In this document: piece after piece, positions 4,237 to 20,206 of the stretch
How positions within the stretch are numbered: position 1 is the first letter of the stretch
Layout: each line of letters begins with the position of its first letter
Virus record (IMG/VR): IMGVR_UViG_3300009451_000004
Location: 1 to 24,050 of that record
DNA: 24,050 nucleotides
DNA from: a virus
Reading direction: 5' to 3' (one strand)
The notes under the pieces: model-generated
The model's database searches: none
What the model saw: only the letters and a program-made list of their open reading frames with translations
What the model was told of the DNA's origin: nothing
Made by a program: the position numbers and the translations under genes

Positions 4237-4354
4237 TTGAACTACTCCTACCTAAAGGAAGGGGATTCCTGAGCTGAGGTAGCCAATGCTGTCCTCATAT
4301 TTCTGCAGGCGTTAATTTCCGTAGTTCCTACGGTATTTGTTATTATATTGATTC
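4237..4354 (-). mobile_element. IS200/IS605 right-end remnant (copy B) abutting nrdJ
   Basis: This 118-bp block is about 95% identical to 8011-8127, differing by one inserted base and a few substitutions. It carries the end of a tnpB reading frame, no longer in frame, followed by the subterminal hairpin (CCCCTTCC...GGTAGGAG) and terminal AGTTCAA of an IS200/IS605-family right end. In this family the same region encodes the omega-RNA scaffold that guides TnpB. Similarity to copy A stops at the G of the nrdJ TAG stop, so the insertion boundary lies exactly at the reductase stop codon. The ~98 bp between this block and the 78-aa gene hold no convincing gene. Confidence 0.75.
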
Positions 4355-5031
4355 TACGTAATTTCACAACTTCCACCTGAACATGCAAGTTCAGCTGATA
4401 ACTCGGTGTTATCTTCATGCTCAATCACTTGTGTTAAGTCAATTCCTTTTAATTGTTTATATAATTTCTCATATTGTTCTTTTGTAATATCCTCAAACGG
4501 CATCTGTTTGTAAGTACCACCGTTGAATGGTAGTATTGATATACCATTATAGTGTTCCTTTTCACGCCACATCCAATCACGTACTTCATCCCATTCTTCG
4601 TCTTTTACCGAAACCGTACATGAAACGTTATGTTGATTTTGTCCACTATGAAATCCGGGGTGAATCCAATTCTGTGACACAAATTTAACACGTTCTAATA
4701 AATCAATAGGTGATTCATGACGTGTGATGGCTCCTTCGGGTGCTTTTTGTGGTACTGATATAACAGCCTGTTGTTCTGGTCTAAAGAATTCATCTTCCAT
4801 TAATTGACTATGATTATCTCTTAAATATGAATAGATTGATTCATCTTTACCAATTCTCAGTCGCCTAATGTAGTAATCATTATGCCATGCATGTATACCA
4901 CTACTCGTACCAAGTACCAAACTAGTTGTATTATGTGAAAGTGTTCCGTTTGACATTTGATACATTGGTTTGTTTTCCACCTCAATATCTACAGTGAATG
5001 ATTGTGTTATTTCTTTTTTCTTAAATTTCAT
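4354..5031 (-). CDS. nrdJ: NrdJ fragment 4: C-intein 3 plus C-terminal extein
   Basis: Residues 1-34 are the C-terminal intein half (ends MSNGTLSHN), with catalytic His-Asn before Thr+1. Residues 35-225 are the last 191 residues of the adenosylcobalamin-dependent (class II) ribonucleotide reductase, starting TTSLVLGTSSGIHAWHNDYY. They end with ACSGGSCEIT, the flexible Cys-pair tail that re-reduces the active site in monomeric RTPR-type enzymes. The tail gives the full reductase its redox shuttle, so splicing of this piece should be needed for multiple turnovers. The N-half partner is at 5216-5548. The TAG stop lies at the junction with an IS605 remnant, so the original end could have been a few residues different. 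Confidence 0.88.
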   Translation of the reverse strand: MKFKKKEITQSFTVDIEVENKPMYQMSNGTLSHNTTSLVLGTSSGIHAWHNDYYIRRLRIGKDESIYSYLRDNHSQLMEDEFFRPEQQAVISVPQKAPEGAITRHESPIDLLERVKFVSQNWIHPGFHSGQNQHNVSCTVSVKDEEWDEVRDWMWREKEHYNGISILPFNGGTYKQMPFEDITKEQYEKLYKQLKGIDLTQVIEHEDNTELSAELACSGGSCEIT

Positions 5032-5548
5032 TGTATCTACTCTTTTAATTTATTCTTTACTCTATCTTTACTAGAATACCAATCAGTATCCCATATTGTT
5101 ATAACGATATATCCCCTATTCTTTTGAACTACCCCTACCTAAAGGAAGGGGTTTTCTTTTTTATTATTTGATAAATTATAAAAACAACTGTTAAACCAGC
5201 TAAATTCATTAATTATTTTTCAATATGTAAAAAATCATCATCTTCTGTAATGTCAATCGCTTGTTTCCAATTTCCATCATTCATCATAAATTTGTGGTGT
5301 GGTGTACATTCAATTATACTTCCATCCTCCATTGTAAATTTTACTGTTTCTTCTGTACCATTTATGAATAATTTTGTAATAGAATTTTCGTTATCGTTAT
5401 CATCATACACTTTAATATCCGTAGTCACATCATACCATTCCCGATATTCATTCAGTTTATCATTGAGTTCTATACCATTTTTCTTAAAAATATTATATAA
5501 ACTCATATCACCATCAGTTGTTCGTATTTTAGTAGATGGAATTTGACA
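4930..5548 (-). other. Split intein 3 of nrdJ (canonical split, no endonuclease)
   Basis: The N-part, 5548-5216 (111 aa), starts CQIPSTKIRTTDGD and has block B ECTPHHKFM. The C-part, 5031-4930 (34 aa), ends LSHN. The insertion point is SVKPAG|TTSLV. The 181-bp gap (5212-5032) holds only a 28-bp IS605 hairpin and AT-rich sequence. Confidence 0.88.
5124..5151 (-). mobile_element. IS200/IS605 right-end hairpin remnant (copy C)
   Basis: The minus strand reads CCCCTTCCTTTAGGTAGGGG followed by TAGTTCAA, matching the terminal hairpin and end of copies A (8011) and B (4237). Only this ~28-bp tip is conserved. It lies in the spacer of nrdJ intein 3, where an endonuclease gene would otherwise sit. Confidence 0.65.
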
Positions 5549-6037
5549 GCCCGCGGGTTTAACCGATGTTGTTCTAGCTGCTGGGTTTATACCTATGATT
5601 TCAGCCACTCGTTTGTTTTCTTCATTAACAACCTCTGCGGATGCTGAATAATTTAACTGTAAGTTCGCTTTGGATGCAATTCCTGTCATACTTACACCTA
5701 ACAACGCATCCTTTTCGGTTGTACGAGCCCATACATCACGTAGGTAATGAAAATCAGTATATCCACCTTGAAGTGTACCAATGAAAGCGGCTGCTTTAGC
5801 ACGTTGTTCAAAGTCCTCTTGGTCTACAACACTACTCATGTTGATTTCGGTAAGGTTACAAAATTGATTTGGTCTTAACGAAATTTCGGCACAATTATGA
5901 ACTAGTAATCCGTTTGCGAAAAAGTTATGATTTTTACGAACCGTAATATCATAAACATCTTCATTCTTTGTTATATTAATTTTTTTTATTTTAATTTCTT
6001 TGTAATTCATATTTTCAATCTTCGGGTTTGTTTCCAT
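5213..6037 (-). CDS. nrdJ: NrdJ fragment 3: C-intein 2, catalytic extein, N-intein 3
   Basis: Residues 1-48 are C-intein 2 (ends NFFANGLLVHN). Residues 49-163 are reductase extein beginning CAEISLRPNQFCNLTEINMS; residues 164-274 are N-intein 3. By comparison with RTPR-type class II reductases, the first extein Cys is the thiyl-radical Cys, Glu two residues later is the catalytic acid, and the Cys in FCNLTE is the active-site reducing partner. Cys+1 therefore serves first in splicing and later in catalysis. The listed start overlaps the endonuclease 3' end by 31 nt. A second ATG at 6010, overlapping the endonuclease TGA as ATGA, would give a 39-aa C-intein of more usual length and is equally plausible. 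Confidence 0.88.
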   Translation of the reverse strand: METNPKIENMNYKEIKIKKINITKNEDVYDITVRKNHNFFANGLLVHNCAEISLRPNQFCNLTEINMSSVVDQEDFEQRAKAAAFIGTLQGGYTDFHYLRDVWARTTEKDALLGVSMTGIASKANLQLNYSASAEVVNEENKRVAEIIGINPAARTTSVKPAGCQIPSTKIRTTDGDMSLYNIFKKNGIELNDKLNEYREWYDVTTDIKVYDDNDNENSITKLFINGTEETVKFTMEDGSIIECTPHHKFMMNDGNWKQAIDITEDDDFLHIEK

Positions 6038-6828
6038 TTACCTAACTCCTTTTTGTATGTACTATCTATTGGTATGTATTTAGTTATATCATCTACAATA
6101 ATTACATCAATATCTAATTTATTATTCAATTCCGTTGTTTTCCATTGTTTGTCTTTCCAGTAGCCTTTAATTTCTACAATTTTAGTTAAATTTAGATTAT
6201 CATATATAAAAAAATCAGGTCTATAGTTTTTATTATTTACTTGAAATGATGTAACTTCCACATCCCATTCTATATTATTTTTATTCAACCATTTAGCGTA
6301 AATATACTCCCAACTACTCCGTAACCATACATATTTATTTTTTGTTACATTGAAGTAATATCCTTGTACTCCACGTTGTGTGTGATGTGATTTTCTATCA
6401 AATGTAGTAAACCACCCCTTTCTATTTTTATATTCATTTTTACTTTTTTGGGTTCTAAATTCACACACTCTATCAGTGACCACATTATACCCTTTTCTAA
6501 TTTGTATACCAAATACCGAAAAAATATCTCTAACCGATGTATATGAGTATTGTAGCTTTCGTGCTATTAACTTTAATCCATATTCTTTGTTATAATATTC
6601 ATCATATAATCCATCTCGTATTATTTTATATTCATCTGGATATATTCTACTTAAATTCTTCTTCATAAACACACGTTTAACCGAAGCTGCGTTCGCCAAT
6701 CCATACTTATCCCATTGTTGTGTTTTAAACTCATCATATGTATCCAATAATTCTTCTGGTATTGTTATTTTATTTCCACGTCCAAGTGGTTTATAAATTT
6801 CATCTAATAATTTTTTTATTACATCCAT
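6007..6828 (-). CDS. Free-standing homing endonuclease in nrdJ split intein 2
   Basis: A 273-aa predicted homing endonuclease lying between the two halves of intein 2, so cutting an intein-free nrdJ would spread both. An HTH-like segment at about 81-110 (GLKLIARKLQYSYTSVRDIF) could bind the target. The C-terminal nuclease core has RGVQGYYFN, SSWEYIYAKWL (E174), then PDFFIYD (D205) and EIKGYW (E219, K221), a PD-(D/E)xK arrangement as in Vsr-like and related phage endonucleases. It differs in the DNA-binding half from the two nucleases in gene 41. It starts 49 nt after the N-half stop, behind a hairpin (6844-6866), and its TGA overlaps an ATG of the C-half (ATGA). Confidence 0.8.
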   Translation of the reverse strand: MDVIKKLLDEIYKPLGRGNKITIPEELLDTYDEFKTQQWDKYGLANAASVKRVFMKKNLSRIYPDEYKIIRDGLYDEYYNKEYGLKLIARKLQYSYTSVRDIFSVFGIQIRKGYNVVTDRVCEFRTQKSKNEYKNRKGWFTTFDRKSHHTQRGVQGYYFNVTKNKYVWLRSSWEYIYAKWLNKNNIEWDVEVTSFQVNNKNYRPDFFIYDNLNLTKIVEIKGYWKDKQWKTTELNNKLDIDVIIVDDITKYIPIDSTYKKELGKWKQTRRLKI

Positions 6829-6843
6829 CGGTAAAAACCCCTA

Positions 6844-6866
6844 TCTTATTTACTATAAATATAAGA
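6844..6866 (-). promoter_or_regulatory. Hairpin upstream of the nrdJ-intein-2 endonuclease
   Basis: The minus strand reads TCTTAT, loop ATTTATAGTAA, ATAAGA, a 6-bp stem 15 nt before the ATG. Its loop is shared with the hairpin before the 13505-12459 endonuclease while the stems differ in sequence yet still pair. A role in limiting endonuclease expression is inference. Confidence 0.4.
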
Positions 6867-6877
6867 TTTTTGAATTT

Positions 6878-7951
6878 TTAATCAATTTTCAATAAAATAT
6901 CTTCATTTGTTAAGTCAGCCGCATTTACATATCCTCTGTTTTTCGTAAAAACTTTATGATCTGGTGTCATTTTTATCATTTCACCATCTTCTAATTCAAG
7001 TTCAATTACATCTGTATCTTCACGTGTTAGTGCACCCATATCAATAATATCCCATTCAGTTTTCTCAGTTTCTTCATTGTATGATAATACATATGGCATT
7101 ATACCACCACTGTCAAAACGTTCTATTAACAATTTCATTGGAATTTGATATGGTACACCAATTGCAATTTCATCATCGGTTTCACTAATACCAACATCTT
7201 TAACTGTAATCAATGCATCCCCTGTGATGCACGGGTTAGTGCCATATTCCATATCATTTGTAAAGTAGATTCCAGGTTCGCCTGCACCACTTTCTTTCAT
7301 TCGTTCCCATAAATCATGGAATTTACTCTTAGTTATCTTGTGTCTGAGTATAACAGCACTGTTATTAGCTCTACCACGTTGTGGATTACGAACATACCAA
7401 TCACCTGTTTTACATGATAACATAGCGGTGTCATCTAAGTTAAACAAGGCTATCATAGCAGCTCTACGAATACCACCCGCTAAAACTGCATCGGCTATAT
7501 GACACATAATGTCATGAGCTTGTAATGAAGTTAGTTTAGTGTTATCTTCCTTTTCACGTAACATACCCTCTATCTTAGTAAGAGCAAGTCTAAGTGGTTC
7601 AGGACCAGGTGCTCTACCACCAGCGGTGATTAATAATGCTCCTTTTTCTCGGATATCACTAAAGTCAAACTGAATATGTGAATTTATTTTACCTGTGTAT
7701 GATTTGAATAGTACTTTAACGGCGTCAGACCATCCAATTATACTATCTTGTATAACATATTTACGTTTTCGGTTGTAATTGGGTTTTCTAATATCAGGTA
7801 GTTTTTCTATATGGTGTGTCTGTATCGAATATCCCACGCCTGTGTTGTGGACTACCTCACCATCCGCTAAGCAAAAATTATGCGTACCTTCGATTGATAA
7901 ATCATAGTAATTACGATTATCATTTATAAATTTCTTTCTAATTATTTTCAT
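6878..7951 (-). CDS. nrdJ: NrdJ fragment 2: C-intein 1, central extein, N-intein 2
   Basis: Residues 1-36 are C-intein 1 (ends GEVVHN). Residues 37-240 are the central barrel of the class II ribonucleotide reductase, from TGVGYSIQTHHIEKLPDIRK through GGRAPGPEPL, MCHIADAVLAGGIRRAAMI and GIYFTNDMEYGTNP. Residues 241-357 are N-intein 2 (CITGDALITV... TPDHKVFTKNRG). TGVGYS follows LLLGG of fragment 1, matching the GTGVGFS segment of RTPR-type enzymes. The extein ends in Asn-Pro immediately before the radical Cys. The start ATG lies downstream of the IS605 remnant, with no endonuclease in between. Confidence 0.9.
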   Translation of the reverse strand: MKIIRKKFINDNRNYYDLSIEGTHNFCLADGEVVHNTGVGYSIQTHHIEKLPDIRKPNYNRKRKYVIQDSIIGWSDAVKVLFKSYTGKINSHIQFDFSDIREKGALLITAGGRAPGPEPLRLALTKIEGMLREKEDNTKLTSLQAHDIMCHIADAVLAGGIRRAAMIALFNLDDTAMLSCKTGDWYVRNPQRGRANNSAVILRHKITKSKFHDLWERMKESGAGEPGIYFTNDMEYGTNPCITGDALITVKDVGISETDDEIAIGVPYQIPMKLLIERFDSGGIMPYVLSYNEETEKTEWDIIDMGALTREDTDVIELELEDGEMIKMTPDHKVFTKNRGYVNAADLTNEDILLKID

Positions 7952-8010
7952 ATGTCATTTCGGTTAATAATGTGTTCATACCACGTGTGTATATATCTCG
8001 TTCCCACCAA

Positions 8011-8287
8011 TTGAACTACTCCCACCTAAAGGAAGGGGATTCCTGAGCTGAGGTAGCCAATACTGTCCTCATGTTTCTACAGGCGTTAATTTCCGTAGTT
8101 CCACGGTATTTGTTATTATATTGATTCCTTCATTGAGTATGTTAAGTGCTGCATTTAAGTCTCTATCATGAACAGTGTTGCAGTGTGGACAAGTCCACTC
8201 TCTATTATTTAGAGTTAATTCAGTGTTCTTATAATTACAAACATTACATATTTCCGTTATTATTTTCAGAAAATGTTTGAATGTCAT
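8011..8287 (-). mobile_element. IS200/IS605 remnant (copy A): tnpB 3' end and right end
   Basis: It contains the last part of tnpB (8287-8069) and a right end with the hairpin CCCCTTCCTTTAGGTGGGAG and terminal AGTTCAA at 8011. The rest of tnpB, any tnpA and the left end are missing. Positions 8011-8127 recur at 4237-4354. The region corresponds to the omega-RNA scaffold in intact elements; the bases after TTCAA would be the guide. Confidence 0.8.
8069..8287 (-). pseudogene. tnpB: TnpB C-terminal fragment (RNA-guided nuclease remnant)
   Basis: A 72-aa frame carries the TnpB zinc ribbon CNVCNYKNTELTLNNREWTC, PHCNTVHDRDLNAALNI, i.e. two CxxC pairs and the HDRDxNAAxN motif that holds the last RuvC catalytic Asp. 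The ~300 residues with the other RuvC motifs are absent, so it cannot cut DNA by itself. The start overlaps the 3' end of nrdJ fragment 1 out of frame; its first ~10 codons are the intein's tail read in another frame, so the true junction is near 8255. It ended up in the slot usually filled by a homing endonuclease. Confidence 0.75.
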
Positions 8288-8900
8288 CTTCTTCTGTTAA
8301 ATCTTGTGCTTCTACCCAACCACGATTAGTTGTATAAAATTTATGATCTGCTGTACATTTTATTGTTTTGCCTGTTTCAAGTGTCAATTCAATTTTTTGC
8401 TTGTCAGCAGTTGCGGTCATTCCTGCAAATGATGGTTGTACCCAGTTGTAGTTATTTGTTTTTTCATCAAATGTTAAAACATAATCGTCAACGGTTACAT
8501 CAATGATACGTTTATCACCGTCTTTTGTTTTTATCAATGTAGCTGGGTCAAAACACCCGCCAAGTAGTAAAAACATAGTTTCGGAAAAACTATATATTGA
8601 ATCAACTGGTAGAAATGCACAATTGTATATTCTTGAATTGTTTATTTCTATAGGTCTACCACCGAACTGCATTGACCGCATTGACGGTAATACTTTCTTA
8701 GTAAGAACAAAGTCATTATACACATCTTCAATTTCACTCGCAATCATTGGGTACTTTCGTACGTGCATTTCCTTATTACGAGTTACTATTTCTTCCCACG
8801 TCTCCCGTCTGTTCTTATCCTCTAAGTGTCTGGCATATTTAGTATGAACCACGATATCGCTGAGTATTTTTTTGTCTAAATCTAAATCTGATAAGGTCAT
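8244..8900 (-). CDS. nrdJ: NrdJ fragment 1: N-terminal extein plus N-intein 1
   Basis: This is the N-terminal piece of adenosylcobalamin-dependent class II ribonucleotide reductase, which converts ribonucleotides to deoxyribonucleotides without oxygen or a second subunit. Residues 1-115 include YARHLEDKNRRETWEE, LPSMRSMQFGG and YNCAFLPVDS; C94 corresponds to the first active-site disulfide Cys. Residues 116-218 are N-intein 1. After splicing all four fragments, NrdJ would be about 625 aa, shorter than the 739-aa Lactobacillus enzyme but keeping the catalytic and tail Cys residues. It supplies dNTPs for phage replication. Upstream lies a 123-bp region with repeats and a palindrome. Confidence 0.9.
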   Translation of the reverse strand: MTLSDLDLDKKILSDIVVHTKYARHLEDKNRRETWEEIVTRNKEMHVRKYPMIASEIEDVYNDFVLTKKVLPSMRSMQFGGRPIEINNSRIYNCAFLPVDSIYSFSETMFLLLGGCFDPATLIKTKDGDKRIIDVTVDDYVLTFDEKTNNYNWVQPSFAGMTATADKQKIELTLETGKTIKCTADHKFYTTNRGWVEAQDLTEEDDIQTFSENNNGNM

Positions 8901-12013: not shown

Positions 12014-12472
12014 TTAACCCATTGTTTCTAAATACTTCTTTCTAAGTATGTTTTTTTGTTCTAATTTACCGTTACCAGCTTCTTTTATTGAAAGTATACC
12101 AGCGGCCGTATTACCATCATATACTTCAATAAAACCTGTATTCGTGTCCATTTTACACGGAAACGTAATTCCATCTGGCCCGAATCTGTTTTTCATAATG
12201 TGAGCCCGTGCCGTGTTATTAAGTTTATCAGCTGGTTTTCTACTCCAACTCATGATAAAGTCAGCGTTCATCACTTTTGCGTATGAATCGGCTATTTTAT
12301 CGGCCTCAATAACCTCGCTGTCAATCGCTGAGTTATGTGAATATACGTCATTTGCGTAAAACATATGTGTATCTTCTACTGTTATGTCTACCGTCTCCCG
12401 TTCACCAATTAATTCAATTGAAACGATTTCATCCATCTCAAAATCCTTTGGGTTTAAATTATGTTGTTTCAT
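12014..12472 (-). CDS. 41: gp41 helicase fragment 3: C-intein 2 plus C-terminal extein
   Basis: Residues 1-47 are the C-half of the second gp41 intein (ends MFYANDVYSHN) and closely resemble the C-half of the known metagenomic split intein gp41-1. Residues 48-152 (SAIDSEVIEADKIADSYAKV... ETMG) complete the DnaB-type helicase, with the DFIMSWSRK and NTARAHIMKNRFGPDG segments of the RecA-like core. Ser is the +1 nucleophile. The start overlaps the 3' end of the endonuclease gene by 14 nt, so its translation is probably coupled to the endonuclease. Helicase function needs this piece because it carries the last core strands. Confidence 0.9.
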   Translation of the reverse strand: MKQHNLNPKDFEMDEIVSIELIGERETVDITVEDTHMFYANDVYSHNSAIDSEVIEADKIADSYAKVMNADFIMSWSRKPADKLNNTARAHIMKNRFGPDGITFPCKMDTNTGFIEVYDGNTAAGILSIKEAGNGKLEQKNILRKKYLETMG

Positions 12473-13505
12473 TTATAAAATTTATACATTTGTTTATAAC
12501 TTCTTGTTTATTAGTATTGTAATCTGACTCCTTAATTCGTAATACCGAATATCCTTTACTTTCCAAAAATCGTTGTTTTAGTTTATCTTGTTGTTTAGTT
12601 TCATCAAGTCTATGCCAGTAGTCACCGTCAAATTCTATTATCTTATTACCACATTTAAAATCAGTCAATATGAGTTTATCATTGTTCATAAAAAACCGTT
12701 CTTCATCATTTCTAGTAGCATATTTACATTTTGATTGATGATTAATATCTAATTGATTATACACGGTGTCAAACAATCTTTGTGATATTTTACTATACCC
12801 ACCTGGTGATTTGAAGTTTCTAATATTTTGTTCTACGTATAATCTATACTTAACTGACCCGTGTTCTGAACCAAATGTGTCTATATAATATTCACGAGAT
12901 AATCTATATTGTTGTTTATCATTTCGTAACTTCCATCGTTTATACCCATCTTCTATACCATGTCGTTCTTGATACTCTTCAAGTGTTCTACCGTTTTTCC
13001 ATTTTTTATTTTTGAAGTTTTCTTTTTGAGTTTTTAGTTTTTTAGTTAATGTTTCTTTCCATTTTTGTTTACCTATTAACTCACCGTATTTTTCTACAAA
13101 ATGTTGCTCTGAAAAGTTACCTTTTGATTTACACAAATCTTTCCATTTTTGTTTACCAAGTTTTTTACCGTATTTCTTAATATATGATTTTTCTGTTATG
13201 GTTGTGTTTTTTATCTTTTCATCAAACATCTGGTTACCAATAGTATCACCATATCTAACTACATAAGATTCCAACGAACTACTATCATTACCAAATTTCT
13301 TACTTTCATTTATTCTGTTTACCCAATTACCGTCTACCTTATACTTAATAAGGTTTCTAATCATATCAGATTTGTAGTATATTGTTTTTTTGTCAAACGA
13401 TGATGCTACCGAATTTAATTGTTCAATAACAAAACTGTCATTAGTTTTAAATTCTCTAAATGGTTTCATTTTTAACATATGTAATCCGTTTTTAAAATAT
13501 TCCAT
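12459..13505 (-). CDS. EDxHD/Vsr-like homing endonuclease with five YGxxxGxxKW repeats
   Basis: A 348-aa predicted homing endonuclease between the halves of gp41 intein 2. Residues ~78-221 hold five degenerate repeats of about 20 aa, form YxxxYGxxxGxxKW (starting near 78, 105, 134, 176 and 203), probably a modular DNA-binding array. The C-terminal nuclease domain has TDFKCGNKIIEFDGDYWH (D282, E291, H298), D307 and GYSVLRIKESDY. That layout matches the very-short-patch-repair-like EDxHD family found in fractured genes (I-Bth0305I is the characterised member). It starts 60 nt after the N-half stop behind a hairpin and overlaps the C-half start. Confidence 0.88.
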   Translation of the reverse strand: MEYFKNGLHMLKMKPFREFKTNDSFVIEQLNSVASSFDKKTIYYKSDMIRNLIKYKVDGNWVNRINESKKFGNDSSSLESYVVRYGDTIGNQMFDEKIKNTTITEKSYIKKYGKKLGKQKWKDLCKSKGNFSEQHFVEKYGELIGKQKWKETLTKKLKTQKENFKNKKWKNGRTLEEYQERHGIEDGYKRWKLRNDKQQYRLSREYYIDTFGSEHGSVKYRLYVEQNIRNFKSPGGYSKISQRLFDTVYNQLDINHQSKCKYATRNDEERFFMNNDKLILTDFKCGNKIIEFDGDYWHRLDETKQQDKLKQRFLESKGYSVLRIKESDYNTNKQEVINKCINFINETT

Positions 13506-13509
13506 AGTA

Positions 13510-13535
13510 TTCTCTTTACTATAAATATAAAGAAA
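13510..13535 (-). promoter_or_regulatory. Hairpin upstream of the gp41-intein-2 endonuclease
   Basis: The minus strand reads TTTCTTTA, loop TATTTATAG, then TAAAGAGA, an 8-bp stem with one G-U pair, ending 5-6 nt before the ATG. It shares ATATTTATAGTAAA with the hairpin at 6844-6866. Confidence 0.4.
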
Positions 13536-13565
13536 TTAAAAAATTGGTACGGAAACACAAAAGTT

Positions 13566-14678
13566 TTATGATTTTTTTGTAAATAATTTATCTCCTACTT
13601 TTAATCCACTTTCTAGTGATTTTAGTTTACCATACTTAACAGGAAATTCATGTCTCAATGAACATTTTACTTTTTTCCCACTTTTTAATGTGATTTCATA
13701 AACTGGTTGTGTTTCTTTCTCAAAAACATGAGTAACTTCTTTGTATCCTTTATGAGTTAAGATTTCATCACCCTCTTTTATTGTACCAATTTGAACTTTT
13801 CCATGCTTTGTATCAACTAAATCTTCTACAAAAAAACATCTATTTGTCTGGCTGGCTGTCCATATAGGTACACCAATTTCACCACTTAATCCACGTAATT
13901 CTATGTAAACCCCACCTTGTTCTTGGTACGTTGAATCTGACCTGTTCGTTCGTGACAACATTAAGTCAGCATAATCAATGATTACCAAATCAGGTCTGTT
14001 ACCCAACATTGTTAGTTTTTCAATGTGTTGTTGTATATGTGTTACCGATACCCCTTTTGGTGGAAAATATTTAATCTGTAGATTACCCTTTAATGTTTTT
14101 ATCTTTTCTTCTACTATATGTGTTTTTTCCTTTAGTTTATTAGATGGTACGTGGGTAAACACAGTGTCATATCGTTGTCCTACATAATGTTCGGATAACT
14201 CCATTGTATAATGTACTACGTTTTTACCTTGTAATACGGCGTGTGCACCGATTGAGGTTAAAATCCACGTGTTATGTGATAATACACCATTTGCGTAAAA
14301 ACATCTAACCTTATCAACTTTCATATCATATAAAATCTTTTCTTTCCCTTCGTGAATTCGTCTTATCTTAGTTAAACCATTATCAGTTTCAATGATATCA
14401 TTCTCAATGTCAATATCCTTAACCTGTTTCCAATCACCATTTACTTTCAATTTATGTTCCCACCCACATTCAAGTGTTCTGTTATTCGTGAAATACAATC
14501 TAATAGCAGTTTGTTTAATAGTTCTACATACCGATGGTATTTTATGATAACCATACGGGGTTTTAACTCTAACATCATGTATCAAATCTTGAAAATGATT
14601 TTCTGTATCTGGTATTTCATTTAACTCAAAAAACTTATCAACTTTTATCGTTTCTCTTTTCTTACGAGTTTGTATCAT
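13566..14678 (-). CDS. 41: gp41 helicase fragment 2: C-intein 1, ATPase core, N-intein 2
   Basis: Residues 1-136 are the unusually long C-part of intein 1 (contains block B LYFTNNRTLECGWEHKLKV and ends CFYANGVLSHN). Residues 137-280 are helicase core: TWILTSIGAHAVLQGKNVVH directly after the Walker A Lys, METELSEHYV-type helix read here as MELSEHYVGQRYD, Walker B PDLVIIDYADLM, and PIWTASQTNR. Residues 281-370 are N-intein 2. The replicative helicase unwinds DNA ahead of the phage polymerase as a hexamer with primase. The start overlaps the preceding endonuclease by 17 nt. Four separate splice-site ends must act correctly on this and neighbouring fragments to make one gp41. Confidence 0.92.
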   Translation of the reverse strand: MIQTRKKRETIKVDKFFELNEIPDTENHFQDLIHDVRVKTPYGYHKIPSVCRTIKQTAIRLYFTNNRTLECGWEHKLKVNGDWKQVKDIDIENDIIETDNGLTKIRRIHEGKEKILYDMKVDKVRCFYANGVLSHNTWILTSIGAHAVLQGKNVVHYTMELSEHYVGQRYDTVFTHVPSNKLKEKTHIVEEKIKTLKGNLQIKYFPPKGVSVTHIQQHIEKLTMLGNRPDLVIIDYADLMLSRTNRSDSTYQEQGGVYIELRGLSGEIGVPIWTASQTNRCFFVEDLVDTKHGKVQIGTIKEGDEILTHKGYKEVTHVFEKETQPVYEITLKSGKKVKCSLRHEFPVKYGKLKSLESGLKVGDKLFTKKS

Positions 14679-15795
14679 TTAGATATTCTTTTATAATATT
14701 CATAACCTTTTCTTTATCATCATTATAGTCATTTTCCCATACAACCAATACATCATATCCATTGTTTTTTAGATAACTAATTTTACGTAAATCATACTCT
14801 CTAATTTCTTGTGCAGTTTTACGTATAATTGGATGTATCTCTGTATCCTCAAATAGTGATTCATGTGCATGCCAATAGATACCAAAATATTCAATAATTT
14901 TATTACCAATTAACATATCTACATTATAATCCAATATGAATTCATTTGCAATCACATCATATTTCAATTCATTAAGTACATAGTCAAATATTTCAACTTC
15001 ATCCTTACTTCTATATTTAACATCACTCATATCAAAATGTTTAGACCATTCAGTTTTACCAACATTTTGTATATGAGTACGCATAGAATTTGATGTTTTT
15101 AATTTACTCTCAACCGTGTGGGTTTTACCAGCAAACTTAGTTGAAGTATTAGATAACTTACGTTGTATATCTGATATTATTAACTCAGACTCAGTATTCG
15201 TATAACCTCTACTCAACCAATATTTAATAGTAAGTGTACTTGGTGATGTTTCATAATCACGTTTTTTACTATTATTGCGTTGTATTTCTGATATTTTTAA
15301 TTTAGCATCATCTAATGTATAACCCTTACCTATCCAATAATCAACATTCCAAATACTACCTCTAATATCTTTATATTTATCAATCCACTTTGTTTGTGTA
15401 AATCTATCTTTCCATAAATTAGATAAATATTCCCGTTGTTTTTGTGGCATTTCTTGTACTCTATCTACGTTATACTTTAACTTATAATCATCAATACTCA
15501 TTTTATGTTTACGTGTTATATGAGACACTAACGATTTTCCTTCAAAATTACATATTTTACATTTCATATTAATTCCGTTAATATAAATACAAGAATACTA
15601 TAAAAACGTAAAATTTTACATAGTCTTACTAATACCACTTAGTTCTATCAATTTCATAGCTTCACTTGCAGTAATTTCAACACCATCATCTAATTGAATT
15701 TTATCCCATGGCTTACACCATATAACATGTCCATTGATTAACTCAAAACCAATTTCATCATATTCAATGTCAATCTCAGTATCACCACCAACACA
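14271..15795 (-). other. Split intein 1 of gp41 (atypical split in Walker A, with endonuclease)
   Basis: The N-part, 15795-15619, is only 59 aa (CVGGDTEIDIEYDE... SGISKTM) and lacks block B. The C-part, 14678-14271, is 136 aa, carries block B, and ends LSHN before Thr+1. The insertion point is APSGVGK|TWIL, splitting the Walker A Lys-Thr pair. The endonuclease 15567-14662 lies in the break. Confidence 0.88.
14662..15567 (-). CDS. EDxHD/Vsr-like homing endonuclease with zinc finger
   Basis: A 301-aa predicted homing endonuclease in the break of gp41 intein 1. Residues 3-21 form a C2H2 finger (CKIC...HITRKH: C3, C6, H16, H21). Two repeats follow at about 77-96 and 116-135 (YWIGKGYTLDDAKLKISEIQ and YWLSRGYTNTESELIISDIQ), likely DNA-contacting. 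The nuclease domain has E190/E192, VDMLIGNKIIEYFGIYWH (D217, E226, H233), D259 and GYDVLVVWENDY, as in the EDxHD family. Its core is related to that at 12459-13505 but the DNA-binding half is entirely different. It starts 48 nt after the N-half stop; TATTAA and TTAATA flank CGGAA immediately before and into the ATG and could fold. Confidence 0.87.
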   Translation of the reverse strand: MKCKICNFEGKSLVSHITRKHKMSIDDYKLKYNVDRVQEMPQKQREYLSNLWKDRFTQTKWIDKYKDIRGSIWNVDYWIGKGYTLDDAKLKISEIQRNNSKKRDYETSPSTLTIKYWLSRGYTNTESELIISDIQRKLSNTSTKFAGKTHTVESKLKTSNSMRTHIQNVGKTEWSKHFDMSDVKYRSKDEVEIFDYVLNELKYDVIANEFILDYNVDMLIGNKIIEYFGIYWHAHESLFEDTEIHPIIRKTAQEIREYDLRKISYLKNNGYDVLVVWENDYNDDKEKVMNIIKEYLNDTNS

Positions 15796-16398
15796 TTTAC
15801 CCACACCGCTAGGTGCCACCACAACTGCAAGTTCACCACCACTTAAACCACCATCCATTAAGTCTGTTATTACATCCCACGGAGTTTCAACCGTTTCACG
15901 GTCTTGTTCATCCATACGTAATGCGTAATCTAATATGTAGTCTAATCCCAAGTCAGTGTTAACACCGACTTTCATTGCAGCGTCTACTAAATCTTTTATT
16001 TTACTGTAATCACCAAGTTTTAGTAAATCAACTGCTTTAAGTATTACCTCTTTGAGATTTTGATTTATACAAAATTCCTTAAATTCAGTTTTAATATAAT
16101 CAATATCAACCGTATCAACCATTGTATATACATGGCGTAATTGGTCAATGATAGTCTTACTTAGAGTGTCTTCTGGTAGTTTCATTATATGTACCTTAAA
16201 CACGTCAAGTGTTGGTACTTTTTTGAAATCCCTATGATACTCCAAGATAGTATCAACTATCCATTTATTGGCATCTGATTCAAAGTAGTCAGACGTTATT
16301 ACTTCACTTAATTCATCAATGAATTTAGCATCAGTTAACAACGCCGCAACTGTCTTGGTCTGAAACGATTGGCCATAGCGAATAAGTGTATCTGTCAT
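15616..16398 (-). CDS. 41: gp41 helicase fragment 1: N-terminal domain to Walker A, plus N-intein 1
   Basis: Residues 1-201 are the DnaB/gp41-type helicase N-terminal domain, linker and start of the ATPase (GGELAVVVAPSGVGK, Walker A). Residues 202-260 are the short N-part of intein 1 starting CVGGDTEID. The extein pieces total 201+144+105, about 450 aa, close to T4 gp41 (475 aa). The start codon overlaps the RNase H stop (ATGA), so the two are translationally coupled. The gene is recognised from the RecA-like motifs and its place beside uvsX, rnh and gene 32. Interruption at Walker A means the unspliced fragment has no ATPase activity. Confidence 0.9.
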   Translation of the reverse strand: MTDTLIRYGQSFQTKTVAALLTDAKFIDELSEVITSDYFESDANKWIVDTILEYHRDFKKVPTLDVFKVHIMKLPEDTLSKTIIDQLRHVYTMVDTVDIDYIKTEFKEFCINQNLKEVILKAVDLLKLGDYSKIKDLVDAAMKVGVNTDLGLDYILDYALRMDEQDRETVETPWDVITDLMDGGLSGGELAVVVAPSGVGKCVGGDTEIDIEYDEIGFELINGHVIWCKPWDKIQLDDGVEITASEAMKLIELSGISKTM

Positions 16399-17916: not shown

Positions 17917-18342
17917 CAATTTGTTATCATGTAGCTCTTTATCTACACTTCTCATGATTTCTCATGAGTTCGGACTATATCTTTATCAAAATTCTTAATT
18001 AACTTCAACACGTTATGACTTATACATCTGTCCACATAACTCACATTTTATTAATTTATTATTTTGATACTCGGCACTCATGGCAATTTCTTCTTTTATG
18101 TACTTATAAGTATAATGAAACGGACAATCCTTACCCAATTTGTATATATTTTTATAAAAGATTAATCTTACTAGTCTCTGAACCGTTACCTCATCACTGA
18201 GGTACTTGGCTGCTGATTTTCCAATGATTTTATTTTTTAACGTTCACACTTATCGTTACCAATTATGTTGTAGTATAAAATCCTCTAAGGACTTCCCAGC
18301 AATTCACCGAGTTTTTTATAGTGGAAGCTAAGCTGTTATCCA
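17917..18342 (-). ncRNA. Group I self-splicing intron in uvsX
   Basis: All four classical core elements are present on the minus strand in order: P AATTGCTGGGAA (18304-18293), Q AATCAGCAGCC (18218-18208), R GTTCAGAGACTA (18183-18172), S AAGATATAGTCC (17983-17972). The 5' exon end AGTGGAGGT pairs with the internal guide GCTTCCACT (18328-18320), with a terminal U-G pair marking the 5' splice site after GGT (18343). A 7-bp P9-like hairpin with GAAA loop (CTCATGA GAAA TCATGAG) lies at 17968-17951. The intron ends in G (17917) before AAG. Excision joins TTSGG to KAIAF in frame. It is 426 nt long. There is no full homing endonuclease, only a ~75-codon open frame with Cys/His pairs. Confidence 0.93.
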
Positions 18343-18708
18343 ACCTCCACTTGTAGTATTATGATTAACCTGTCCATTTGCTATATAATTCTCATTATCA
18401 GCAACTGATATGTCTACCACATCCATACTACCGTTTACTTTCAGTGCATCTGGATGATCTCGTAATTTAACATACGTGTCACCTAACTTAACTCGGTGAT
18501 TTCCCGTACCATTTAATTTTCCTAGTGAATAATATTCATTCACTTTTTGTTTTACTAGAAACTCGCGAACCTCTTTATACTCAATGTCACCATTACCGGA
18601 CATGGATTGTACTTTCAATCCCAATCCAGTGGTATCCAATACCTCAGGTGTATCAAGTTTCATGTCAAACAATTGAGATAATTGTCCTAATGTTACTTTT
18701 TGTTTCAT
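18343..18708 (-). CDS. uvsX: uvsX fragment 3, exon 1: C-intein 2 plus five extein codons
   Basis: Residues 1-117 are the long C-part of uvsX intein 2, including block B (NGTGNHRVKLGDTYVKL) and the terminal ENYIANGQVNHN. Then Thr+1 begins TTSGG, the conserved RecA stretch before L2, and the exon ends at the intron 5' site. Without RNA splicing the frame reads WITA and stops (TAG, 18330-18328), which would give an intein half with only nine downstream residues. The ATG is one nucleotide after the TAA of fragment 2 (TAACATG) in a different frame, so the ribosome probably re-initiates. Confidence 0.9.
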
Positions 18709-18817
18709 GTTATTTATTTTTATTAATTATTTGTAATAACTTATCATGATATTCAGAATAAAATTCTGAATTTTCATCATATTCTATTTCGACCTCCGTA
18801 CTCAATGGATCAACACA
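18358..18817 (-). other. Split intein 2 of uvsX (atypical split, no spacer)
   Basis: The N-part, 18817-18713, is 35 aa (CVDPLSTEVEIEYDE...) without block B. The C-part, 18708-18358, is 117 aa and ends VNHN before Thr+1. The insertion point is FGDPW|TTSGG. The halves are separated only by a stop and one base, with a frame change and no endonuclease. Confidence 0.88.
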
Positions 18818-19627
18818 CCATGGATCTCCGAACATTGCGTTCATTTTAACACGGAGTTGGTTAGTATAAACTATCAATACTTTTTGTCTTCCAATCATAT
18901 TGGTAATTTTCCTCATAGCCTTGGATATGATAATAGCCTTGTCTGTTGCGTAACCATCTTTACCATGTTCCGATGCAATCTCGGTTGTGGTTGATGCTGC
19001 TGCCACTGAGTCAACTACTATTGTAACCAACTTATCTCGGTCAGTTTGTCTAACCTTTTCAATTATAGTTTCGGTAAATTCAAAACATTGTTCTACTGAA
19101 TCTGCCACTATGTACAATAACTTAGATACATCTACTCCAATGGCACCTAAGAAATCAGTACTTACTGCATTTTCAGTATCAATTAGTACCGCAATTCCAC
19201 CCTTTTTTTGTGTTTCTGCTAAAAGGTGAGCGGATACTAGTGATTTTCCTGAATTATGATTTAGAAACCCATTACCAAAATAGGAATGGTCATCACTATC
19301 TACTTCGATATCAACAATTGGAAATTTCCCAATATAATCAACCGAAATTACTGTATGATATGAATTATCATCACAATGTATTTTAGTTGTATTTGGTTTT
19401 AATTTATCAGTGGACATCCACCCTTGACTTGTGAAAAATCTATGTTTTGCTGATGTTTTTATACTATTTCCATTATCTAACTCAATTTTAAATGTAGGTA
19501 ATATACCTTTTTCAAAATAGTCAACAACGGGTACAAATTCATCGTTTTTAGTGCGGACTTTTATTTTTTTACCAGATTTCAACAGTTCCTTGACTTCCGA
19601 TATTTTTATTTGTTTAATTATACTCAT
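18710..19627 (-). CDS. uvsX: uvsX fragment 2: C-intein 1, RecA core, N-intein 2
   Basis: Residues 1-125 are the C-part of intein 1, holding block B (IKTSAKHRFFTSQGW) and the end HSYFGNGFLNHN. Residues 126-270 are the recombinase core from SGKSLVSAHLLAETQKKGG (rest of Walker A), IDTENAVSTDF, Walker B LVTIVVDSVAAAS, to NQLRVKMNAMFGDPW. Residues 271-305 are the short N-part of intein 2. UvsX forms filaments on single-stranded DNA for recombination-dependent replication and repair. Neither ATP-binding nor the DNA-binding L2 segment is complete until both trans-splices occur. Confidence 0.92.
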   Translation of the reverse strand: MSIIKQIKISEVKELLKSGKKIKVRTKNDEFVPVVDYFEKGILPTFKIELDNGNSIKTSAKHRFFTSQGWMSTDKLKPNTTKIHCDDNSYHTVISVDYIGKFPIVDIEVDSDDHSYFGNGFLNHNSGKSLVSAHLLAETQKKGGIAVLIDTENAVSTDFLGAIGVDVSKLLYIVADSVEQCFEFTETIIEKVRQTDRDKLVTIVVDSVAAASTTTEIASEHGKDGYATDKAIIISKAMRKITNMIGRQKVLIVYTNQLRVKMNAMFGDPWCVDPLSTEVEIEYDENSEFYSEYHDKLLQIINKNK

Positions 19628-19975
19628 TTTTATTACGTTATAATCGTTCTAAATTTTTATCATTTATAATGATGATTTTATTTTTAATTTTATCTTCAAT
19701 ATCTGAATATAATATTGTTGATAAATCATATGTAGTTTCATCTATAACAGAAAAAGTTAAATTGTATTTCTTACAATAGTTTTTAGCTGCTTCAAATTTC
19801 AGTATATTAAGTGGAGTGTTCCGTAATCCATGCGGTTTTATTTCACATGCCACATTCTCATTCAGAAATACAATATCTGGATTATACGTCCTATCAGTTC
19901 CATTTTGATCTTTATATCACAGGATTAAAAAAATCACTCAATAATTACATCAATTAGTGTATCTTCGGTTACACA
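19253..19975 (-). other. Split intein 1 of uvsX (13-residue N-part, Walker A)
   Basis: The N-part, 19975-19937, is only CVTEDTLIDVIIE before TGA. The C-part, 19627-19253, is 125 aa and ends LNHN before Ser+1. The insertion point is ITGLEQ|SGKS, inside the Walker A loop. A truncated endonuclease fills the 306-bp break. Confidence 0.88.
19638..19916 (-). pseudogene. Truncated homing endonuclease in uvsX intein 1
   Basis: The frame opens after a TGA (19919-19917) with YKDQNGTDRTYNPDIVFLNE, then NVACEIKPHGLRNTPLNILK and about 50 further residues ending NDKNLERL. PDIVF...ACEIK is a PD-(D/E)xK nuclease core (D and ExK visible), and KFEAAKNYCKKYNLTFSVID is the usual following helix and strand of phage homing endonucleases. 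The N-terminal DNA-binding region is missing, and the only start in frame is GTG (19853), inside the nuclease core. It is most likely a deletion remnant of a gene like those in the other breaks. Confidence 0.65.
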
Positions 19976-20206
19976 TTGTTCTAATCCGGTGATTTCTATA
20001 ATTCGTCCTACTGGTGCACCACCGTACGCTCTATTTGAAACAGCCACATCTAATATAGCGTTTCCAAATGATACCCAATCTGGAACGTTCGTTGGAACGT
20101 TCCCATCTGAGTCTAGGAAATATGCTACTTGTTGTGATTTAGAGTTTTTGTTTAGAGTTTCCGCGAGGATATCTACCAATTCACCACTTTCCTTTTTCTT
20201 TGTCAT
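19934..20206 (-). CDS. uvsX: uvsX fragment 1: N-terminal extein plus 13-aa N-intein
   Basis: Residues 1-77 are the UvsX/RecA N-terminal region (VPDWVSFGNAILDVAVSNRA, GGAPVGRIIEITGLEQ), stopping just before the Walker A GKS. Residues 78-90 are the N-part of intein 1. PVGRIIEI.G matches the GRIVEIYGPESSGKT region of RecA. The start is chosen by the shared ATTAAGTTATG context and lies 10 nt downstream of the gene 32 stop. The full recombinase requires fragments 19627-18710 and the intron-containing 18708-17470. Fragment 1 alone lacks any nucleotide-binding motif. Confidence 0.88.
   Translation of the reverse strand: MTKKKESGELVDILAETLNKNSKSQQVAYFLDSDGNVPTNVPDWVSFGNAILDVAVSNRAYGGAPVGRIIEITGLEQCVTEDTLIDVIIE

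What the first reader, a model, noticed from the sequence alone, without database searches (positions are those of the whole stretch)
17917..18342. Group I intron inserted 15 nt downstream of an intein junction in uvsX
P, Q, R, S elements, a 9-position P1 pairing and a GAAA-capped P9 are all visible. UvsX therefore needs RNA splicing plus two protein trans-splices. The intron separates TTSGG from KAIAF, so two kinds of selfish element share one conserved RecA motif (around L2).
Basis: seen in the sequence. Interest (0 to 1): 0.88.

Follow-up and report, generated by a model that had tools for sequence, protein, structure and literature searches.

The report
Intron and split intein sharing RecA
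A phage recombinase gene carries a self-splicing RNA intron only 15 bases after a split protein intron (intein); related phages show the same pair again and again, apparently handed on together as one block, so the intein may hitch-hike on the intron's DNA-cutting enzyme.

Summary
A group I intron lies at 18342-17917 (minus strand; Rfam RF00028, 54 bits, E=2.4e-11), between TTSGG and KAIAF of a RecA-type UvsX, 15 nt after the C-terminal junction of a split intein. P1 (9 positions), P10, P3-P9 and both splice sites are supported by covariation across ten introns at the same site.

New points: (1) The window's intron has lost its homing-endonuclease gene; relatives carry a Vsr/EDxHD-type endonuclease of about 290 aa there, here a 22-codon stub remains. 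(2) The intein+intron pair recurs in at least seven phage lineages; intein alone, intron alone and empty alleles all exist. (3) Two phages about 97% identical differ exactly by a block from the intein start to the intron's 3' splice site: split intein + endonuclease intron in one, a different contiguous intein and no intron in the other. (4) The inteins next to introns group together, while their host UvsX sequences reject such a clade (p-AU about 1e-9).

Best reading: a composite element in which an endonuclease-less split intein travels with a mobile intron next door. RNA splicing plus two trans-splices for UvsX is supported by ORF structure; no splicing or homing has been shown experimentally.

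The parts
17917..18342 (-). Group I intron, 426 nt, HEG-deleted
   Evidence: RF00028 54 bits E=2.4e-11; covariation on ten same-site introns
18343..18357 (-). 15-nt micro-exon TTSGG: +1 extein residue Thr of the intein at one end, 5' strand of P1 (AGUGGAGGU, 18351-18343) at the other
   Evidence: sequence; P1 pairs
18320..18333 (-). Internal guide sequence: P10 strand GCUUA (18333-18329) and P1 3' strand GCUUCCACU (18328-18320)
   Evidence: P10 pairs with the 3' exon AAGGC (17916-17912) and covaries in relatives
18172..18183 (-). R element GUUCAGAGACUA (P7 5' strand)
   Evidence: invariant in ten introns
17972..17981 (-). S element GAUAUAGUCC (P7 3' strand)
   Evidence: invariant in ten introns
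17951..17968 (-). P9 hairpin, 7 bp, GAAA loop; all seven pairs covary in relatives
18013..18081 (-). Stub of the deleted homing endonuclease: MSAEYQNNKLIKCELCGQMYKS*; about 735 nt missing relative to L100, joined within ATAA
   Evidence: comparison with the 1161-nt intron of L100
18328..18708 (-). ORF3: C-terminal intein-b fragment (ends NHN, 18358) + TTSGG + readthrough WITA* into the intron; after RNA splicing continues into KAIAF...
   Evidence: TIGR01443 intein_Cterm above cut-off on the joined intein
18710..19627 (-). ORF2: C-terminal intein-a fragment (ends NHN|SGKS) + UvsX exon 2 (Walker A to FGDPW) + N-terminal intein-b fragment (CVDPLST..., 35 aa)
   Evidence: PF00154 100 bits; PF14890 below cut-off
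19934..20206 (-). ORF1: UvsX exon 1 + 13-aa N-terminal intein-a fragment CVTEDTLIDVIIE*
   Evidence: the same intein is contiguous in L083
17470..17916 (-). UvsX exon 4 (KAIAFHASVR... to stop)
   Evidence: PF00154 43 bits; intronless homologues

Best explanation
The feature is a self-splicing group I intron that was mobile in its ancestors and has lost its endonuclease gene here. It sits in uvsX one micro-exon (15 nt) after a split, endonuclease-less intein. To make UvsX, the third mRNA segment is first RNA-spliced (exon codons S-G-G pair with the guide sequence in P1; the 3' exon pairs in P10). Its product IntC-TTSGG-KAIAF... is then joined by protein trans-splicing to exon 2, which is itself joined to exon 1 by a second split intein. 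In relatives the intron encodes a Vsr/EDxHD-type homing endonuclease, and intein plus intron are inherited and exchanged as one block. The likeliest mechanism is that the intron's endonuclease cuts intronless uvsX alleles, and break repair copies the intron together with the intein 15 bp away, replacing whatever intein (or none) was there. Shown: intron structure, boundaries, HEG loss, recurrence, allele replacement, tree discordance. Inferred: splicing activity, endonuclease activity, co-conversion as the cause.
For: Rfam match; covariation of P1, P10, P3, P5, P6a, P8 and P9 on ten introns; same pair in L083, L100/L105, L104/L117, L111, L151/L157, L173; intron ORF in relatives resembles Vsr (Pfam E=2e-4, below cut-off) and best PDB hit is 3r3p 'Mobile intron protein' (E=0.017); L100 vs L147/L154: flanks 95.5-98.7% identical, intein 53% and no intron in L147; L100 vs window: intein 90%, intron 95-97%, exon 4 74%, downstream 75%; with-intron inteins are one side of a branch (weak support 80/27) while their UvsX exon-4 sequences reject one clade, p-AU 9e-10; intron-bearing inteins never hold an endonuclease in the split, whereas 16 intronless ones do.
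Against: No transcript or protein data. Joint presence followed by repeated loss or intein replacement could also give the tree discordance, and the direction of change in the L100/L147 pair is not fixed. The intein clade has weak support. Exon 2 of the window is as similar to L147 as to L100, so no upstream co-conversion gradient can be claimed. The window's own copy cannot home by itself.
Confidence: 0.72

Rival explanations
1. Two independent elements that each target the same conserved RecA motif and simply ended up as neighbours; no joint transmission.
For: Intein-only (about 30 distinct) and intron-only alleles (L169, L170, L172) exist, so each can live alone. The intron endonuclease and the endonucleases in intein splits are separate clades. 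Insertion into conserved sites is general for both kinds (PMC2814812).
Against: Inteins beside introns group together and all lack their own endonuclease, although host genes are scattered. The L100/L147 allele pair differs by the whole block.
Confidence: 0.22
2. A decayed intron that no longer splices, so that this phage's UvsX is truncated after TTSGG.
For: The endonuclease is deleted, and unspliced RNA ends in WITA*.
Against: All catalytic elements, P1, P9 and most of P10 are intact; P8 arms survive the deletion; exon 4 is open and RecA-like. Deletion of the endonuclease usually leaves splicing intact (general knowledge).
Confidence: 0.04
3. Assembly chimera.
For: Window and relatives are metagenome contigs.
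Against: The same arrangement was assembled independently: L100 and L105, L104 and L117, L151 and L157 come from different samples; the alternative allele likewise (L147, L154).
Confidence: 0.02

Closest known systems
I-Bth0305I and its group I intron in recA of Bacillus phage 0305phi8-36 (EDxHD homing endonuclease; described in PMC3943268; location in recA from my own knowledge)
   Same: Phage RecA-type gene, group I intron, Vsr-like endonuclease in relatives; the I-Bth0305I catalytic domain (PDB 3r3p, 'Mobile intron protein') is the best solved relative of the relatives' endonuclease.
   Different: The window copy has no endonuclease; a split intein lies 15 nt upstream; I could not compare insertion sites (phage record not held).
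Split inteins in 'fractured genes' of phage-like metagenome sequences (Dassa et al. 2009; not held, own knowledge)
   Same: Host gene broken into ORFs by split inteins, with Vsr-like endonucleases between halves in relatives.
   Different: The intein next to the intron has stop and start adjacent and no endonuclease between; a mobile intron sits beside it.
Neighbouring inteins MCM-a/MCM-d of Haloferax (PMC10643990)
   Same: Two selfish elements at close sites in one conserved gene.
   Different: There both are endonuclease-bearing inteins and co-homing is poor; here one is an RNA intron and only it carries an endonuclease.
Bacillus recA and phage group I introns (PMC3984707)
   Same: Group I intron interrupting a recA-type gene.
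   Different: No intein partner described there.

Membership tests
Group I intron | Covariance-model match above the curated cut-off | tested here: met
   54.0 vs 50 bits
Group I intron | P, Q, R, S elements, P3-P9 core with covariation | tested here: met
Group I intron | U before the 5' splice site paired to G; G as last intron base; P10 | tested here: met
   U.G in 10/10; omega-G in 10/10 rows, with L169's 3' site placed by frame and P10; window P10 four of five pairs
Group I intron | Guanosine-dependent self-splicing | not testable with these tools
   needs bench work
Mobile group I intron (with homing endonuclease) | Intact endonuclease gene in the intron | tested here: not met
   window: 22-codon stub only; relatives: intact ORFs
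EDxHD (Vsr-like) homing endonucleases (relatives' ORF) | Vsr-like nuclease domain | tested here: inconclusive
   Vsr E=2.1e-4 but 21.5 vs cut-off 27 bits; PDB 3r3p E=0.017
Split intein (intein b) | Cys1, block-B T-x-x-H, C-terminal His-Asn and nucleophilic +1 residue | tested here: met
   C1, TGNH, HN|T in sequence; TIGR01443 17.8 vs 15.6 bits; PF14890 below cut-off
Split intein (intein b) | Halves in separate ORFs | tested here: met
   ORF2 ends 18710, ORF3 starts 18708 in another frame; kept in seven lineages
Split intein (intein b) | Trans-splicing activity | not testable with these tools
   needs bench work
RecA/UvsX | RecA domain | tested here: met
   PF00154 100 and 43 bits vs 27; spliced protein vs RecA chains E down to 1e-53 for single-domain chains

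The most novel reading that the evidence does not exclude
A composite mobile element: a split intein without an endonuclease and a group I intron with one, fused functionally through a shared 15-nt micro-exon, homing together into the RecA L2 region and displacing other inteins. This would be a case of a protein-splicing element dispersed by an RNA-splicing neighbour.
Probability: 0.45. Interest if true: 0.8.

Novelty: new variant of a known kind. Interest (0 to 1): 0.62.

Why it matters
Turgeman-Grott et al. [quoted passage not shown] Here is a natural system, present in many marine/environmental phage contigs, with all four allele states and a near-isogenic allele pair (L100 vs L147). It makes that question directly testable, and shows a recombinase that needs one RNA splice and two protein trans-splices.

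Tried and rejected
Near search of the whole window in phage records: no match. Distant search with the intron hits only core stretches of other phage introns. Bacterial recA genes with an intron at this site: 11 pattern hits in genome contigs, none in recA. Idea that the intron endonuclease moved over from the neighbouring intein's endonuclease: rejected, separate clades. Idea of an upstream co-conversion gradient in exon 2 (75 to 87% window vs L100): dropped, because the window shows similar identity to intron-free L147 there. A first intein tree had a faulty extraction for some contiguous inteins and was redone. HPnc0580 match at 4262-4348: below cut-off, taken as chance. Comparison with the 0305phi8-36 recA site: record not held. 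Papers on I-Bth0305I, fractured genes and Bacillus recA intron: not held.

Full report
What is there. The window is one complete IMG/VR contig of 24,050 bases. On the minus strand uvsX is broken into three ORFs: 20206-19934 (exon 1 + 13-aa intein-a N-fragment), 19627-18710 (intein-a C-fragment + exon 2 + 35-aa intein-b N-fragment) and 18708-18328 (intein-b C-fragment + TTSGG), followed by an intron and exon 4, 17916-17470. Exon 2 and exon 4 match Pfam RecA above the cut-off, and the joined exons align with RecA structures through FGDPW-TTSGG-KAIAF = FGNPE-TTTGG-NALKF.

The intron. Rfam RF00028 matches with 54 bits, E=2.4e-11, above the gathering score. The RNA folds better than dinucleotide shuffles (z=-2.3). 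Ten introns at the same site (window plus L100, L083, L104, L111, L151, L169, L170, L172, L173; endonuclease ORFs cut out) were aligned. A structure written from known group I anatomy gave 94.2% standard pairs, 41 of 73 pairs with changes on both sides, covariation score 0.49 against 0.18 in shuffles (0/500 reach it) and 0.05-0.10 when slid. These shuffles do not keep relatedness; the slides do. P10, which joins the guide sequence to the 3' exon, changes in step (AAAGC/GCUUU in L111, AAGGC/GCCUU in L170, GUAGC/GUUAC in L169), which fixes the 3' splice site; the window keeps four of five P10 pairs. RNAalifold on the same alignment finds these helices plus an extra helix between P7 and P3' (columns 214-230 with 315-330), as expected of a P7.1-type extension of subgroup IA (subgroup assignment is inference). 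An in-frame stop follows the 5' splice site in the window and in the relatives read (WITA*, WLTA*, IS*, IA*, ITK*), a feature reported for bacterial group I introns (PMC3984707).

Loss of the endonuclease. In L100, L083, L104 and L111 the intron is 1161-1193 nt and holds an ORF of about 280-330 codons that begins in the P3/P8 region and ends past P7. It has a ROS/MUCR-like zinc-finger start and a Vsr/MTES_1575-like nuclease (weak Pfam matches); the best PDB relative is 3r3p, 'Mobile intron protein', E=0.017, the EDxHD endonuclease I-Bth0305I (name from my own knowledge; family in PMC3943268). The window's 426-nt intron keeps the first 22 codons and stops (18081-18013); about 735 nt are missing, and both P8 arms remain.

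Distribution. Empty alleles: 517 stretches encode UvsX relatives, and the best 80 listed are continuous across both sites. Intein b without intron: about 30 distinct loci. Intron without intein: L169, L170, L171/L172, whose endonucleases are 38-40% identical to that of L100. Both: window, L100/L105, L083, L104/L117, L111, L151/L157, L173. L129, L132 and L134, another phage RecA, also carry an intron at the same GG|KA site. In all intron-bearing cases the intein is split with stop and start next to each other and no endonuclease between; 16 intronless intein-b loci have a Vsr-like endonuclease between the halves. This is a pattern in related sequences, not an independent count, so I give no p-value.

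Joint movement. L100 and L147/L154 are about 97% identical along several kilobases. They differ from the intein's first codons to the intron's 3' splice site: L100 has the split intein, TTSGG coded ACTACAAGTGGAGGT and the endonuclease intron; L147 has a contiguous intein (53% nucleotide identity to that of L100), TTSGG coded ACAACCAGTGGTGGA, and no intron; exon 4 resumes at 98.7%. Window and L100 agree by 90% in the intein, 100% in the micro-exon and 95-97% in the intron but by only 74% in exon 4 and 75% downstream. For older pairs the intein is less alike than exon 2 (e.g. window-L083: exon 2 70%, intein 60%, intron 74%), so the window-L100 pattern is unusual. On the UvsX exon-4 tree carriers of both elements need six changes and one clade is rejected (p-AU 9e-10 for seven rows; 1e-89 for the five closest). 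On the intein tree they are one side of a branch in the best tree and in 82% of bootstrap trees, though the branch itself is weak (80/27). The intron endonuclease is not a daughter of the intein's endonuclease.

How it most likely works. Expression: RNA splicing of the third segment, then two protein trans-splices. Of the 15 shared bases, the first codon serves the intein (+1 Thr) and the last nine serve P1, so the micro-exon is almost wholly used by the two elements (sequence; inference). Mobility: the intron's endonuclease cuts an intronless allele, and repair from the donor copies intron and intein together. I-Bth0305I-type enzymes can bind targets of nearly 60 bp (PMC3943268); a target of that length here would reach past the intein site 15 bp away, so an intein-bearing and an intein-free recipient would look different to it. 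That is a prediction, not a result.

Comparison and novelty. The parts are known kinds. The arrangement - an endonuclease-less split intein and a (formerly) mobile group I intron separated by five codons, recurrent, swapped as a block - I did not find described in the held literature; most subscription papers are not held, so absence is weak evidence. PMC10643990 states the open question this bears on, and phage intron endonucleases can affect competition between co-infecting phages (PMC11620839 abstract).

Noticed in passing
L092 (minus, near 9892-9462) and L120: A third intein site (RLG|TSFGDPY) lies seven residues before intein b in these UvsX genes, giving two inteins seven residues apart; with the intron site, three insertion sites fall within about 12 residues of the L2 region.
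   Followed up: partly
window 19970-19300 (-): Intein a at the Walker A motif is split after only 13 residues (CVTEDTLIDVIIE*), with a decayed TnsA-like endonuclease reading frame (19889-19638) between; in L083 the same intein is one contiguous 137-aa piece, showing how the short split arose by insertion.
   Followed up: partly
L129 (4706-7156), also L132, L134: Another phage recA appears to carry about five group I introns, several clustered around L2, one at the same GG|KA site.
   Followed up: partly
window 4354-8900 (-) and 12014-16398 (-): A ribonucleotide-reductase-like gene and a DnaB/gp41-like helicase gene are also broken by split inteins, with several endonuclease-like ORFs (6828-6007, 13505-12459, 15567-14662).
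   Followed up: partly
window 8069-8287 (-): A 72-aa ORF (CNVCNYKN...WTCPHCNTVHDRDLNAALNIL) looks like the zinc-ribbon end of a TnpB protein, inside the split-intein region of the reductase gene; not tested with a family search.
   Followed up: no
L153 and L148: Near-identical inteins at the b site, one split with an endonuclease between the halves (L153), one contiguous (L148): a snapshot of splitting or healing.
   Followed up: no
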